A DNA stretch of 64,000 nucleotides from NCBI RefSeq assembly GCF_963576545.1, contig NC_083654.1:16822199-16886198 (forward strand), read 5' to 3'. The stretch comes from Limanda limanda (lineage: Eukaryota > Chordata > Actinopteri > Pleuronectiformes > Pleuronectidae). Shown one piece after another: positions 42,729-47,433 of this stretch. The first letter of the stretch is position 1; every line of letters begins with the position of its first letter. The position numbers were made by a program, and so were the translations under genes. The notes below the pieces were generated by a model. The model had not been told where the DNA came from, did not search any database, and saw nothing but the letters and a program-made list of their open reading frames with translations.

Positions 42729-45336
42729 ATGATGGAAGTGGTCCTGACCAGACTGCGGGACTTCTCCTGCAAGACCTCCACCTTCAACGGCGGCGAGGGA
42801 GCCGGACAGAGTGCATGCAGGGAAACACGGACGAGGACGGAGCAGCTCAGAGACACAGCTGGAGGAGAAGGCAGCAAAATGGACATTGAGAGTGCACTGG
42901 CCTGGCTGAGGAGAGAACTGGTAAGACTGGGACTAAATAGACTGTGAAACACTCATGCATGCATAGTACTTTTCTCCCACTGCACTACAGAGGTATATAT
43001 TATACTAAATTATAACAGGTGATGCTATACAGTGTTTTGCAGCTTATCAGACCATTTTTTGTTGAAGATGTGCAAAGTTTTTCCGATATTTAGATGAGGT
43101 CATCAATGCGTTTTACAATGTTAATATTAAGTTGCAACTTGGGAGCTCCAACTATTTCAATGAAAGGCTGAATTCAAGAGTAAATTAAAAGTCCTCAACT
43201 CAACTCAGTATACTCACGAGGGACTTTGTTGCTGCGGCCTTACATGGCCTGTGTTTACCCAGACGCTTATGGCAACTCATTTAAACTCATGTTAGCGATA
43301 TTCAGCTCAATATTGTTTTCCAATGAAAATATTTAAATGATTCTTGCATGTGAATTACATCAATTTGGAGTATTCCTATGTGGCGCTATAGCTACTTTCA
43401 CTTTTTACAAGAATTCTTTATATACCACTGCTGTGTCTAATATGTTGAACTCTTTATACTTTATACACTAAAACTCATATCCAAGGTGTCATAATGCTGC
43501 TTACAGTTCCAGGGAAGCCATTATGAAGAGAGATAAATATAAAATATATTACTCAAAAGCTGAGGAATAAGATTGTTCTTGAGCTACAGAGGCGTCTGTG
43601 TGGTCGTCTGACAACTGTAAGATTCCAGTGAAGACAAAAGCATTTTTATCGTTTGTTATGTCAAAGGTCAAAGGACATTTGTCACATGAACAAAATGACC
43701 CCCGGGGACACTGTGAATGTGTTTATATGTGAGGAGCCCAAGTTATTGCCTTTTTGTTCCTAAGATGCATGTAGGTCATGTTGTTACAATGTCAACCTCT
43801 TTCAAACCATGCTCTCCACTCAAAGAGGCCCTGTGTGTGTGTGTGTGTGTGTGTGTGTGTGTGTGTGTGTGTGTGTGTGTGTGTGTGTGTGTGTGTGTGT
43901 GTGTGTGTGTGTGTGTGTGTGTGTGTGTGTGTGTGTGTGTGTGTGTGTGTGTCTGTTTGCACCTCTGTGACCAACTGTGTGACGCTCATTGTCAGGGCCT
44001 AATATATCACTCGACATTTAGTGCATTCAGGCAGACAGCTCGTCATGGTAACCGAGGGTCGTGAGCACGCAGAGACACAGGAACCACACGTCTGACCCTG
44101 AGAGCAGCGGCTCGACCCTCTGAGCAGCAATGGACGATCTTTTCTGAAATCGACTCATCCTAAAAAACCTTTAAACTATTTGTTTCCATCCCTGCCTCTG
44201 TTTTCTTTCTTCAAACTTCTCACCTCCAGTTGTTTTCAGGGCTGACGCTCTCTCAACCTGTTTTATCTCCGTCCACCAGGCTGACAGATATAAAACTACT
44301 TTGGGACACCAAACAGAGAGTAAACTACACTTCAAGTGTAGAAAAACTGGTGGAGTGTCCCTTTAAAAGCCTGACTGGTGCAACAACGTCGTTCCAATTA
44401 TAAAATCGTATCCACAACTCTATCTCTTGGATGAATAGCGAGTAGAACTGGCGGGTGTTTCGTTATCCACACATCGGCTCTTGATTGAGATGCAACTCTG
44501 CAGTGGAACGGTTAAGAACATACTCATGCAGATGCAGAGAAGCACAAACACATAATCCAGTGTTTGGCTCAAAGGAAATGCTTGTGTTTCTTCACTTATT
44601 TCTCCCAAGTGTTGACAAAGGCAGAGTAAAACCAGCGTCTTTCACTGGGAGCCCAGTCTCAGCCGGGTGCTGTAATTACCAGAGAAAAGAAATGCAGATT
44701 GGACCAGATGGGTTCTTTTTTTCTTCTTTCTTTTCGTCTGGGACATTCCTCGGGACAAACTTCGGACTCTGGAGTTGGTGGAATTCTGAATATCTTATTT
44801 TACAATGCTGGCAATTAAACAGCCGTCCGTAAGAGAGGGAAGAAAGAGTAGAGATTTGCATTTGAAAGACGCTCAGATCGAAAATAGCTGTGGTTTCACA
44901 CTGAGCCTGAAACTGGTCGTGTTGAAAAGGAAAGAAACTCAGGTTCATTTCAAGTTTGTGATCATTGGATATCTGGTCCTGTATGTCTGTTTTCTCTCTA
45001 TCCATAGACTGATTTGTTCCCTGTGTACAGATGGAAATGCGTTCCCAGGACCAAGCTCTGATCCGGCAGCTGATGGAGCTTCACTCCGGCATCCAGGAGC
45101 TCAAGCAGGAGTTGTCTGAGGAGGAGGAGGAGGAGGAGGAGGAAACAGACGAAGATGAAGAGGAGGGCAGCTACTGGGGCTCTGAGAGCGAACAAGGAAG
45201 CGGCAGCAGCAGCGGCAGCGTCTACTCCAGCTCAGGGGAGGTGGGCTCCTCCACCTCCTTCCTGAAGACACCACCCCCCCTTTACTACGGGGTATTATCA
45301 AAGAAAGCGTTCAGCAGGAGAAGCTCCGTGCCCTGA
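42729..45336 (+). CDS. FAM167/AARD-family small protein
   Basis: Two exons, 42729-42920 (64 codons) and 45031-45336 (101 codons plus stop), joined in phase 0 by a GT-AG intron; 165 aa. The core spanning the junction reads ESALAWLRREL then MEMRSQDQALIRQL, GIQELKQEL. It is homologous to AARD (its neighbour at 46953-47433, split at the identical codon) and to the FAM167 core (WLRxEL-x-EMRxQDxxLxRQL). After the helix come nine glutamates and an Asp/Glu run, a Gly/Ser-rich stretch, and a C-terminus SSTSFLKTPPPLYYGVLSKK then AFSRRSSVP. The C-terminus resembles the SxxxSTPL...GV...SRRxS end of FAM167A as I recall it. Function is unknown; FAM167 proteins have been linked to NF-kB signalling, which I would not transfer here. 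The start could be the first or second ATG. An extended poly(A) region ends near 46580. I assign no symbol because paralogy to AARD versus FAM167 is unresolved. Confidence 0.8.
42921..45030 (+). other. intron of the FAM167-like gene
   Basis: 2.1-kb intron with one very long (TG)n tract (43832-43952). The rest is AT-rich with no recognised element. Confidence 0.7.
43832..43952. repeat. long uninterrupted (TG)n, about 60 units
   Basis: 121 bp of perfect alternating TG, the longest microsatellite in the window, lying in the FAM167-like gene intron. Confidence 0.95.
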
Positions 45337-45564
45337 CAATTCAAACAGTTAGAACACGAAAAACAACTTTTCAGAGTCTCTCCTCAACTTCTTTACATCC
45401 TCTAAGACAAGGTGGAGCCAGATTAATAAATCTGCTATTTCCCACCATAATTTCAATGCCCTTTATTTTATGTTCTTTTGTCAAAGAAGAACCAACCAAG
45501 AGGATGAGTGGAGTTAAGGACAGAATGAGTCTTGTCTTTGTGCAAAAACAGACTTGCTCTTTCC

Positions 45565-45975
45565 CCAACTTTTAGTCTTCATGCTAAGCTAAGCTAACCA
45601 ATGTCTGTAGCTTCCTAATTAAACGGACAGACAGTGAGAGAGTCTTCTCATCTTTGACTCAAAGCAAGAAAGCAAATAAACATTTTCCCAAAATTGTCGT
45701 ATTCATAGACCGTAAATAAAGACCAACAAGTCCGCACAGTAGAGTTAAGAGAATGGAGACACAGATTTGAAATCCCGTCGATACCCACTCCCAAACAATG
45801 ACGAGTCAGTTTCAGCTGTCAATCATGACTTTAAAGTATTTTTTACGAGGAGAAAGAGGGATTTAGAACCATACTACAGTCAGCCACCAGGGGGCGAGCG
45901 AGGTGCTTTGGCTTCACTTTTGGGGAGCTGCCATATAATCCATCTTTTTTAGTCCTACTCCTTTAAGTCGGTATA
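45565..45975 (+). repeat. teleost dispersed repeat, split by an insertion
   Basis: The left part (45565-45703) runs through GTCTTCATGCTAAGCTAAGC, CTGTAGCTTCCTAATTAAAC, ACAGACAGTGAGAG and CCCAAAATTGTCG. The right part resumes with ACTCCTTTAAG near 45957. I recognise this order as a common teleost repeat normally read without interruption. It lies in the 3' UTR of the FAM167-like gene. Confidence 0.5.
45704..45955 (+). mobile_element. MITE-like element nested in another repeat
   Basis: Left end CATAGACCGTAAATAAAGAC and right end ATCCATCTTTTTTAGTC are imperfect inverted complements. The interior includes GCTGTCAATCATGAC, GCCACCAGGGGGCGAGCGAG and TTGGCTTCACTTTTGGGGAG, landmarks of a familiar teleost non-autonomous element. 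A fragment of the same family is at 10482. Confidence 0.55.
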
Positions 45976-46555
45976 TTAAGCTGTGTGACAGACAAGCACA
46001 AATTCCGAGTTAAACACTGACCTGAAGGCGGCCATTGCTGTCTTTGCATAGTATTGTTTGTCTGAGAAAGTTTGAATACAGAAATTCTCAATAATGTGCA
46101 ACTGAGATCCCTGTGTTACCACCGCAGAATGTGTGTGTGTGTGTGTGTTTTTGTGTGTTTGTGTATGCACATGTGCTGGAAGCTCGCTGACCTTTCATGA
46201 CCATAACGATGTTCAGAATGAGTTCAGCGCCGCAGCCGGACAGTTTGAGTTCATTGTATCTTTATTATGCCCAAGCAGTGATGAAACCTTCTGGGGACAG
46301 TGAGACATTGTTATTGAGACCCTGCAGTGTAAATATGTTTCTGAGAAAGGATTATTAAAGTCGGGTTTGTACAGTGCAGCTGTAAATCCATTCAAAATGT
46401 TAACTGTGGTTATATTGATTCTGATGTACAGAAAGAACCTGTGAAGTGTAGAAGTTAGAATCGTATGGAAATGAGATGTTGATGTGTATATTAACTTTTT
46501 TTGAACGTGTAGCATAATTTCAAACAGGTACTGTACTGCAGCAGTATGCCATGAC

Positions 46556-46561
46556 AATAAA
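46556..46561 (+). terminator. poly(A) signal of the FAM167-like gene
   Basis: AATAAA followed closely by an A-rich stretch, 1.2 kb after the stop codon and 35 bp before the opposite-strand AARD signal. Confidence 0.5.
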
Positions 46562-46595
46562 GACATTTTTAAAAAAAAACTGTGATGTTGCAGTC

Positions 46596-46601
46596 TTTAT
46601 T
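46596..46601 (-). terminator. AARD poly(A) signal
   Basis: TTTATT on the plus strand (AATAAA in AARD sense), about 350 nt after the AARD stop codon. Confidence 0.5.
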
Positions 46602-46952
46602 TTTTGCAAAACTACAAAACATGCCAACATAAAACTTTTCTTGATTCCATCTTTACATTCGAAAACGTCTTGTTTCCTGACTTGCAAAGAAACAAGCTTT
46701 CCTCAGCACAACTCTGCAAAAGTGCAAAAGATTATAATCTAAATTAAACCTCTTATTCCGTTATCCAGGTTATTTTGGCTGCAGATCTCTATTTTACACC
46801 ATGACACATTTTATTTCAAAGAGCCATAATCACAAACATGTTCATTTCATATTTTACATTTGAATTTTGGAGCTATGGGCTGCATCTTGTCCACCATGGG
46901 TTCCAGTAAGAGCACTTTCCCCCCCAGAGAATGGGCTGTCTGCCGAGGCCGG

Positions 46953-47433
46953 CTACTGCTGATCCTCCCCCTCTACGTCCACACCTCCGAAACTCTCCCT
47001 CCTCAGTCTTTGGATCTCCGAGTTGAGCCCGAGCAGTGTCTGAGCCAGCTGGAGGTCCTGAGAGCGCATTTCCAGCTGCATGACAACAATGAAAGAACTG
47101 AATCAGCAGAATGTAGCACAAAGACAGAAAGGGGGATTCAAATTCACGGCAACTTTTGCAAACTACAGAGAAAAAGCAGCAAATACCAACTCAGCAATCA
47201 CAGCTTACCAGTTCAGACCTCAGCCAGGTTATGGCTCCATCGATCTGCGCCCTCCTCAGCTCCTCGTTGGCCTGGAAGCTGCTTCCGATGCTGAGCGGTC
47301 TGACCGAGGATCCCGAGTCCTGAGGCTCCTCTCTGGACTCTCCTGTCGCTCTGAAGGCATGAATCAGTTTGTTTTTAATGTTCTCCAGGACCATGGTGGA
47401 CAAGGTGTCCTCGCTGTGACTGTCCCGGTCCAT
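46953..47433 (-). CDS. aard: alanine- and arginine-rich domain-containing protein (AARD)
   Basis: Two minus-strand exons, 47433-47209 (75 codons) and 47075-46953 (40 codons plus TAG), joined in phase 0 across a 133-bp intron; 115 aa. The start is MDRDSHSEDTLSTMVLENIK; a second in-frame ATG lies 13 codons later. The signature helix reads DGAITWLRSEL then LEMRSQDLQLAQTLLGLNSE and IQRLRRE. It lines up with human AARD (ARLRAELVEMHFQNHQLART as recalled) and sits between RAD21 and SLC30A8 in the same relative orientation as human AARD. The protein is shorter than human (155 aa) and lacks its alanine-rich stretch. Molecular function is unknown. Its partner at 42729 shares the intron position and core. 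Confidence 0.85.

What the first reader, a model, noticed from the sequence alone, without database searches (positions are those of the whole stretch)
42729..47433. Convergent AARD/FAM167-like gene pair; a second gene of this type not seen in the human order
Two small two-exon genes face each other between SLC30A8 and RAD21. Both are split in phase 0 at the same codon, directly before the (M/L)EMRSQD block, and share a WLR.EL-x-EMRSQD..L helix. One sits where AARD belongs. The other has, in addition, a C-terminal tail that resembles FAM167A (STP-like block, GV, RRxS). This suggests that AARD is a divergent member of the FAM167 family and that an AARD neighbour was kept in fish but lost in mammals (or duplicated in fish).
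Basis: partly seen in the sequence, partly recalled or inferred. Interest (0 to 1): 0.75.

Follow-up and report, generated by a model that had tools for sequence, protein, structure and literature searches.

The report
Fish partner of AARD, C20orf202 relative
Two small neighbouring fish genes belong to one poorly known family of helix-forming proteins; one is AARD, and the other is probably the sister copy of a human gene (C20orf202) that mammals keep on a different chromosome, so that fish and mammals seem each to have kept the opposite duplicate.

Summary
Both genes are real. Gene A (+, exons 42729-42920 and 45031-45336, 165 aa) and gene B (-, exons 47433-47209 and 47075-46953, 115 aa) face each other between SLC30A8 and RAD21; both are split in phase 0 at the same codon. 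B is AARD. A has relatives across teleosts under conflicting names. The link to FAM167 holds: profiles of A, AARD, C20orf202 and FAM167 match far above heptad-preserving shuffles, and all four share the intron position. 'Lost in mammals' needs amending. A ends SRRSSVP, C20orf202 SRRSSLP, AARD has no such end. Human C20orf202 lies by RAD21L1 on RAD21L1's strand, as A lies by RAD21 on RAD21's strand. Best reading: A and C20orf202 are 2R ohnologs, reciprocally lost; no copy was recognised in 150 kb round this fish's rad21l1 or 110 kb round rad21b. Limits: the 45-residue helix does not resolve the tree, a diverged copy could be missed, non-teleost fishes were not seen. Probable function, inferred: a small coiled-coil adaptor with a C-terminal basophilic-kinase/14-3-3-type motif.

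The parts
42729..42920 (+). Gene A exon 1 (64 codons, MMEVVLTRLRDFSC...DIESALAWLRREL)
   Evidence: N-terminal L-RLRDFS block and DI---L--L--EL conserved in 44 aligned teleost proteins
42921..45030 (+). Gene A intron, phase 0, GT...AG, with a 120-base TG repeat (43832-43951)
   Evidence: spliced forms in relatives on 913-2188-base contigs
45031..45336 (+). Gene A exon 2: MEMRSQD helix half, acidic tract, Ser-rich block, C-terminal SRRSSVP and stop
   Evidence: RR.S.P at the C-terminus in 90 of 94 listed A relatives with core and length >=130
46556..46561 (+). Candidate poly(A) signal AATAAA of gene A
   Evidence: sequence; function inferred
46596..46601 (-). Candidate poly(A) signal AATAAA (reverse strand) of gene B, about 35 bases from that of gene A
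   Evidence: sequence; function inferred
46953..47075 (-). Gene B (AARD) exon 2: LEMRSQDLQLAQTLLGLN... and stop
   Evidence: recalled human AARD matches here at E 0.002; AARD relatives
47076..47208 (-). Gene B (AARD) intron, phase 0, same codon as in gene A
   Evidence: AARD forms that read on past exon 1 (P0222, P0263, P0274) break at the same place
47209..47433 (-). Gene B (AARD) exon 1 (75 codons)

Best explanation
Gene B is AARD. Gene A is a FAM167/AARD-class gene and most likely the RAD21-side 2R duplicate (ohnolog) of mammalian C20orf202, which sits beside RAD21L1. The ancestral block carried an A-type gene, an AARD-type gene facing it, and RAD21 on A's strand; after genome duplication the fish line kept the RAD21-side A copy and the mammalian line the RAD21L1-side copy (C20orf202). 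The protein probably works as a small adaptor: one rigid helix of about 45 residues (predicted) pairs with itself or a partner as in the LRAP adaptors, is flanked by disordered acidic and Ser-rich tails, and ends in RRSSVP-COOH, a basophilic-kinase (PKA-like) site that could dock 14-3-3 when phosphorylated. Shown: gene structure, homology of the helix, shared intron, conserved C-terminus, synteny of the window. Inferred: ohnology, pairing, kinase and 14-3-3 use.
For: hhalign: A vs C20orf202 E 3.4e-11, A vs AARD 1.3e-15, A vs FAM167 (two recalled human sequences) 1.4e-13; 0 of 60 heptad-preserving column shuffles reach the observed score in each of six pairs. Same phase-0 intron in A and AARD, at the exon-2 acceptors of both FAM167 genes of this genome (CAG|AGAGAGATG, CAG|ACTGACATG), in C20orf202 (marmot P0176 reads WLRREL, then what looks like intron, then EMQIQD; P0193 and P0194 join other first exons just before EMQ) and in AARD forms P0222 and P0263. 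C-terminus RR.S.P: 90 of 94 A relatives, 73 of 78 C20orf202; RR.[ST] in the last ten residues in 0 of 120 listed AARD-search hits. Human C20orf202 20:1203454-1209076 and RAD21L1 20:1226044-1255876, both given without 'complement' (PMC11089493, passages); in the window A and RAD21 are both +. This genome has a rad21l1 (C7, FKBP1A about 15 kb away) and a second rad21 (C11). A joint exon-2 profile finds the two fish FAM167 exons, which were not in its training set, at 8.2e-11 and 6.6e-9, and nothing better than 0.38 in the 150 kb (3,819 N) and 110 kb examined.
Against: The 45-residue core does not place C20orf202 with A: AU p 0.46 (with A), 0.55 (with AARD), 0.44 (with FAM167); the free ML tree joins it weakly to AARD (53) and does not even recover A as one clade. 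Three C20orf202 proteins scanned have no Pfam match to FAM167, LURAP, ERICH4 or Dapper at E<=1. Eutherian C20orf202 lacks A's N-terminal block. A profile trained without C20orf202 finds 5 of 6 C20orf202 exons only at 0.003-0.12 and one at 2.4, against background of 0.41, so a diverged copy beside rad21l1 could be missed. C7 is called rad21l1 on a small margin (77 vs 75% and 75 vs 70% in two exons) plus FKBP1A; PSMF1 and SDCBP queries found nothing there, and SLC30A8 and UTP23 queries nothing round C11. Gar, sharks, coelacanth, birds and amphibians were not seen (listing limit). Function is untested.
Confidence: 0.68

Rival explanations
1. Gene A is the true one-to-one ortholog of C20orf202: one gene only, which moved between the RAD21 and RAD21L1 neighbourhoods without a 2R duplicate.
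For: No second A-type copy was found in this genome (an insensitive search); several records already call A 'C20orf202'.
Against: A single-gene move that lands beside the RAD21 paralogue on the same relative strand is a coincidence that block duplication explains for free.
Confidence: 0.13
2. C20orf202 is the ohnolog of AARD, not of A; A is a third FAM167-class gene kept in fish.
For: The core tree weakly joins C20orf202 with AARD (support 53); best of three constrained trees by 0.4 log units.
Against: Strand: C20orf202 lies on RAD21L1's strand, AARD on the strand opposite to RAD21. The end SRRSS[LV]P is shared with A and was not seen in AARD.
Confidence: 0.1
3. Gene A is a tandem duplicate of AARD made within ray-finned fishes, and its C20orf202-like C-terminus is convergence.
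For: A and AARD are neighbours and share intron and core.
Against: Core identity of A to fish AARD (0.46) equals that of fish to mammalian AARD (0.47); the usual ends SRRSSVP and SRRSSLP share 6 of 7 residues.
Confidence: 0.06
4. The helix is a generic coiled coil and the resemblance among A, AARD, C20orf202 and FAM167 is compositional.
For: Pfam matches of both window proteins to PF11652 are below the gathering score.
Against: 0 of 60 heptad-preserving shuffles reach the score in each of six comparisons, and the intron interrupts the same codon in all four.
Confidence: 0.03

Closest known systems
C20orf202 (human 20p13, near RAD21L1)
   Same: WLRKELSEMQIQDQ helix (profile E 3.4e-11), intron at the same codon, C-terminal SRRSSLP, strand relative to the RAD21 paralogue
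   Different: Lies by RAD21L1, not RAD21; lacks the VVLTRLRDFSC N-terminus and the acidic tract; the named hits are all eutherian, which reflects the query too
FAM167A / FAM167B (PF11652; DIORA-1)
   Same: Helix (0.53 core identity of A to recalled human FAM167A), intron position, RRxS before the last two residues
   Different: Window protein below the Pfam gathering score (16.1 vs 25 bits; one of 120 listed relatives, P0015, carries PF11652); block between helix and RRFSLC absent in A; other genomic places (C12, C18)
AARD
   Same: Gene B is AARD by position, profile and intron; A shares helix and intron
   Different: RRSSVP-type end in 0 of 120; no acidic tract
ERICH4 (PF15039, DUF4530)
   Same: A's best Pfam match (24.3 bits); 21 of 120 listed relatives carry PF15039; recalled ERICH4 scores 193.5 bits to it. 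The match runs through the helix into the acidic tract
   Different: Below the gathering score of 28.1; core identity to recalled human ERICH4 only 0.31
LRAP adaptors LURAP1 (LRAP35a), FAM89B (LRAP25), PF14854; DACT N-terminus, PF15268
   Same: Sub-threshold matches in the same helix (19.1 and 19.6 bits); 7 and 1 of 120 listed relatives carry PF14854 and PF15268; small helix-plus-tail build as in LURAP1
   Different: LURAP1 ends in a PDZ-binding motif (PMC5677176, passages); A does not. Whether these genes share the intron was not learned

Membership tests
FAM167 (PF11652) | Pfam gathering score (25 bits) | tested here: not met
   A 16.1 and B 16.4 bits; best of four other A-family proteins scanned 21.5; one of 120 listed relatives carries PF11652 in the precomputed column
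FAM167 (PF11652) | Homologous WLRxELxEM helix | tested here: met
   (recalled human FAM167A/B, which score 134.5 and 87.2 bits to PF11652)
FAM167 (PF11652) | Phase-0 intron directly before the xEM codon | tested here: met
   exon-2 acceptors of both FAM167 genes in this genome; their exon-1 donors were not found
FAM167 (PF11652) | Full C-terminal block ...STPLKxxGVTKMNINSRRFSLC | tested here: not met
   by eye, only the RRxS end is shared
C20orf202 group | C-terminal RRSS[LV]P-COOH | tested here: met
C20orf202 group | Same-strand position near a RAD21 paralogue | tested here: met
   window; human coordinates in PMC11089493
C20orf202 group | Phylogenetic grouping with C20orf202 | tested here: inconclusive
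C20orf202 group | One-to-one orthology (position beside RAD21L1) | tested here: not met
   A is beside RAD21; no copy recognised in the 150 kb examined round rad21l1
AARD (gene B) | Position between RAD21 and SLC30A8, AARD-type helix and intron | tested here: met
   the human position is recalled
LRAP/LURAP (PF14854) | Pfam gathering score (25 bits) | tested here: not met
   A 19.1 bits
LRAP/LURAP (PF14854) | Binding of MRCK through the helix | not testable with these tools
   reported for LRAP35a and LRAP25 (PMC9954052, passages)
ERICH4 (PF15039) | Pfam gathering score (28.1 bits) | tested here: not met
   A 24.3 bits; Danio P0111 27.2

The most novel reading that the evidence does not exclude
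FAM167A/B, AARD, C20orf202 and fish gene A are one vertebrate adaptor family, defined by a single 45-residue helix cut by a shared phase-0 intron, and are kin of the LRAP, ERICH4 and DACT helices; A and C20orf202 are reciprocally retained 2R ohnologs that databases now pass off as orthologs, and both end in a C-terminal RRSSxP switch for a basophilic kinase and 14-3-3.
Probability: 0.25. Interest if true: 0.5.

Novelty: new member of a known kind. Interest (0 to 1): 0.42.

Why it matters
It gives four little-understood vertebrate genes (AARD, C20orf202, fish gene A, FAM167) one ancestry and a testable shared working part, warns that fish genes named C20orf202 are probably ohnologs and not orthologs, and points to the conserved C-terminus as the first thing to test in a 20p13 gene listed as of unknown function (PMC11089493). 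Three searches of the held open library for these names together listed only papers that, by title and abstract, do not treat them as one family; none of those papers was read for this.

Tried and rejected
Core-only phylogeny: 45 residues do not resolve A, AARD, FAM167 and C20orf202; LURAP1, ERICH4, DACT1 and FAM89B fall among the A sequences. PDB sequence search: nothing below E 0.06. NCBIfam: only unrelated hits below cut-off. Whole-genome search with C20orf202: one hit with stops, E 0.12, dismissed. Whole-genome search with gene A: itself, and weak hits, the best C7:5528715 (E 0.001), a GAG-repeat poly-Glu artefact; the other weak hits were not inspected, and this search did not list the AARD or FAM167 exons, so it does not exclude diverged copies. 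A motif scan failed on its window control for exon 2 and was replaced by the profile search; in that search the two window genes are in the training set, so the fair controls are the FAM167 exons and the leave-out run. PF14854 in the genome (to see whether LURAP/FAM89 share the intron) did not complete. Two CTAWWWWTAG (MEF2-type) sites (22 of 100 shuffles have as many) and one TGACGTCA upstream of A were judged uninformative. Nothing supports the database name KCNA4-like. On rereading I corrected one count (20, not 18, of 27 entries) and two arithmetic slips in the odds: the novel case is a conjunction that includes the tail switch rated 0.35, so it was lowered from 0.45 to 0.25, and three rival odds were trimmed so that all sum to 1.
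Full report
What is there. Gene A on the + strand has exons 42729-42920 and 45031-45336 with GT-AG sites and a 165-residue product; gene B on the - strand has exons 47433-47209 and 47075-46953 and a 115-residue product. Both introns are phase 0 and fall before the codon that precedes EMRSQD. The stop codons face each other, 1,616 bases apart; candidate poly(A) signals lie about 35 bases apart at 46556-46561 (+) and 46596-46601 (-). tblastn with recalled human sequences places SLC30A8 at 39091..35460 (-), RAD21 from 51662 (+) and UTP23 at 59152..58004 (-); a MED30 Pfam match lies at 29090-29446 (-). 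The first RAD21 exon is 100% identical to recalled human RAD21 and 80% to recalled RAD21L1.

Gene A is a real, conserved gene. A protein search gave 210 relatives at E<=0.01, of which the best 120 are listed, from Platichthys (95%) to Danio, Anguilla, Megalops and Arapaima; the close flatfish hits suggest the source is a flatfish. In an alignment of the window protein with 43 of the 120 the invariant columns lie in the N-terminal L-RLRDFS block (and F19), the helix, one Trp (W113) and the C-terminal RRxSxP. Database names are contradictory: C20orf202, FAM167A, AARD, FAM89A, KCNA4-like, glutamate-rich protein 4 and si:ch211-153f2 forms. Of 27 A-type entries known only from Logan/ENA assemblies, 6 span the junction in one frame on contigs of 913-2188 bases and 20 start at the exon-2 ATG; of 11 AARD-type entries 2 span it. 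This is indirect RNA support from relatives. For the 19 species with contig lengths in both listings (33 A-type species typed in), A and AARD are on contigs of identical length in 16; the exceptions are Menidia, Scophthalmus and Poecilia formosa, perhaps through different assemblies or scaffolds. Scortum, Pampus and Lucifuga have consecutive locus tags.

Gene B is AARD. A profile of recalled human AARD and gene B gave 312 proteins at E<=0.01 (best 120 listed): AARD of primates and other mammals, and fish proteins named AARD, FAM167A, si:ch211-153f2.3 or unnamed.

One family. hhalign among the A, AARD, C20orf202 and FAM167 alignments gives E from 1.7e-8 to 1.3e-15 over 40-55 columns (the FAM167 side is two recalled human sequences, which score 134.5 and 87.2 bits to PF11652). 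Because all are helices I permuted target columns within heptad classes: 0 of 60 permutations reached the observed score in each of six pairs. The intron is independent evidence. Exon 2 of this genome's two FAM167 genes begins CAG|AGAGAGATG and CAG|ACTGACATG, the same codon and phase; exon 1 was not found in the short loci held. For C20orf202 the marmot form P0176 reads WLRREL, then an insert that looks like intron, then EMQIQD, and P0193 and P0194 join other N-termini just before EMQ; AARD forms P0222 (ENA, species not given) and P0263 (Symphalangus) run from LR(V/A)EL into other sequence. These are readings of proteins, not of genomic DNA.

Pfam shows wider, weaker ties. The window protein of A matches PF15039 (ERICH4; 24.3 bits), PF15268 (Dapper; 19.6), PF14854 (LURAP; 19.1) and PF11652 (FAM167; 16.1), all below gathering scores. 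Among the 120 listed relatives the precomputed Pfam column has PF15039 in 21, PF14854 in 7, PF11652 in 1 and PF15268 in 1; by Pfam alone A would be filed nearer ERICH4 than FAM167, perhaps because ERICH4 also has acidic residues after the helix. Against the wide family: three C20orf202 proteins have no match to any of these models at E<=1.

What A is. The 45-residue core does not decide the nearest relative of C20orf202: AU p-values are 0.46, 0.55 and 0.44 for A, AARD and FAM167, and the free ML tree joins it weakly to AARD (53) while scattering distant families among the A sequences. Two other characters point to A. First, the C-terminus: RR.S.P ends 90 of 94 listed A relatives that have the core and at least 130 residues (exceptions P0010, one residue longer; P0016, marked partial; P0045 and P0098, other ends) and 73 of 78 C20orf202 hits (exceptions P0190, P0192, P0196, P0197, P0198); 0 of 120 listed AARD-search hits have RR.[ST] in the last ten residues. 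Hexamers drawn from the C20orf202 tail composition match RR.S.P in 43 of 200,000 draws. FAM167 ends RR(F)(S/T)LC, so RRxS itself may be ancestral and only the final SxP is special to A and C20orf202. Second, synteny: a paper gives human C20orf202 (20:1203454-1209076) and RAD21L1 (20:1226044-1255876) without 'complement', in an interval with ANGPT4, RSPO4, SNPH, SDCBP2, TMEM74B and FKBP1A (PMC11089493, passages); A and RAD21 likewise share a strand, while AARD is opposite. That 8q carries the paralogues ANGPT1, RSPO2, SYBU, TMEM74 and RAD21 is recalled. RAD21L is described as found only in vertebrates (PMC8291703, passages), which fits a 2R duplicate.

Reciprocal loss. With a recalled RAD21L1 N-terminus the genome gives three rad21-type genes: the window's, one on C11 that resembles RAD21 (called rad21b here), and one on C7. 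C7 is nearer recalled RAD21L1 than RAD21 by a small margin (77 vs 75% and 75 vs 70% in two exons) and has FKBP1A about 15 kb from its first exon, as expected of the 20p13 counterpart; recalled PSMF1 and SDCBP found nothing in these stretches, nor did SLC30A8 or UTP23 round C11. In 150 kb around C7 rad21l1 (one gap of 3,819 N) and 110 kb around C11 a joint exon-2 profile (A, AARD, C20orf202, FAM167, FAM89B) finds nothing better than E 0.38. It finds the two fish FAM167 exons, not in its training set, at 8.2e-11 and 6.6e-9, and the window genes, which are in it, at 4.5e-15 and 6.1e-15. The limit: trained without C20orf202 it finds 5 of 6 C20orf202 exons at 0.003-0.12 and one at 2.4, with background at 0.41. 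So no C20orf202 was recognised at the expected place; a diverged one could be missed. Whether a mammal keeps a relic of A by RAD21 was not tested. A recent fish duplication of AARD is unlikely: core identity of A to fish AARD (0.46) equals that of fish to mammalian AARD (0.47).

How it may work. AlphaFold2 on 25 sequences gives one confident helix, residues 53-99 of the Paralichthys protein (block means 89-98, 78 at its end), a short uncertain helix 3-12, and low confidence elsewhere; mean pLDDT 64, pTM 0.35; monomer only. The build recalls the LRAP adaptors: LURAP1 joins MRCK and MYO18A through its leucine repeats and a C-terminal PDZ motif (PMC5677176, passages), and LRAP25 promotes LIMK1 phosphorylation by MRCK (PMC9954052, passages). 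FAM167A acts in noncanonical NF-kB signalling through desmoglein-1 (PMC8892744, passages); [quoted passage not shown] The tail RRSSVP-COOH resembles the KCNK3 end RRSSV, which is said to bind 14-3-3 in a phosphorylation-dependent manner (PMC8016131, passages); A has one more residue, so this is an analogy. I rate adaptor function by helix pairing about 0.6 and the phospho/14-3-3 tail about 0.35; neither is shown.

Verdict. The gene is already in databases under many provisional or wrong names. In the held library, searches for these names together and for C20orf202 alone listed no paper whose title or abstract treats them as one family.

Noticed in passing
59589-62618 (+): Open reading frame of 1010 aa with reverse transcriptase and endonuclease Pfam matches (PF00078, PF03372): a long LINE-type ORF just beyond the 5' end of UTP23.
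   Followed up: partly
46556-46601: Candidate poly(A) signals of the two convergent genes lie about 35 bases apart on opposite strands, so their transcripts may meet or overlap at the 3' ends.
   Followed up: partly
41824-41833 and 42703-42712: Two CTAWWWWTAG (MEF2-type) sites, the only two in the window, both within 1 kb upstream of gene A's ATG; 22 of 100 shuffles have as many in the whole window.
   Followed up: partly
42450-42457: Perfect TGACGTCA (CRE) about 270 bases upstream of gene A's ATG; three in the window, 0.73 expected.
   Followed up: partly
L006 (G000:C7:5928010): The first aligned codon of rad21l1 in this genome reads Leu, not Met (LFYTQLFTSKRG), perhaps a non-ATG or displaced start.
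   Followed up: no
42103-42162, 43832-43951: TG dinucleotide repeats of 60 and 120 bases upstream of gene A and inside its intron.
   Followed up: no
database names: Gene A relatives carry at least seven conflicting names (FAM167A, FAM89A, AARD, C20orf202, KCNA4-like, glutamate-rich protein 4, si:ch211-153f2); KCNA4-like looks like a propagated error.
   Followed up: partly
17502-18044 (-): 181-aa open frame without a Pfam match at E<=0.001.
   Followed up: no
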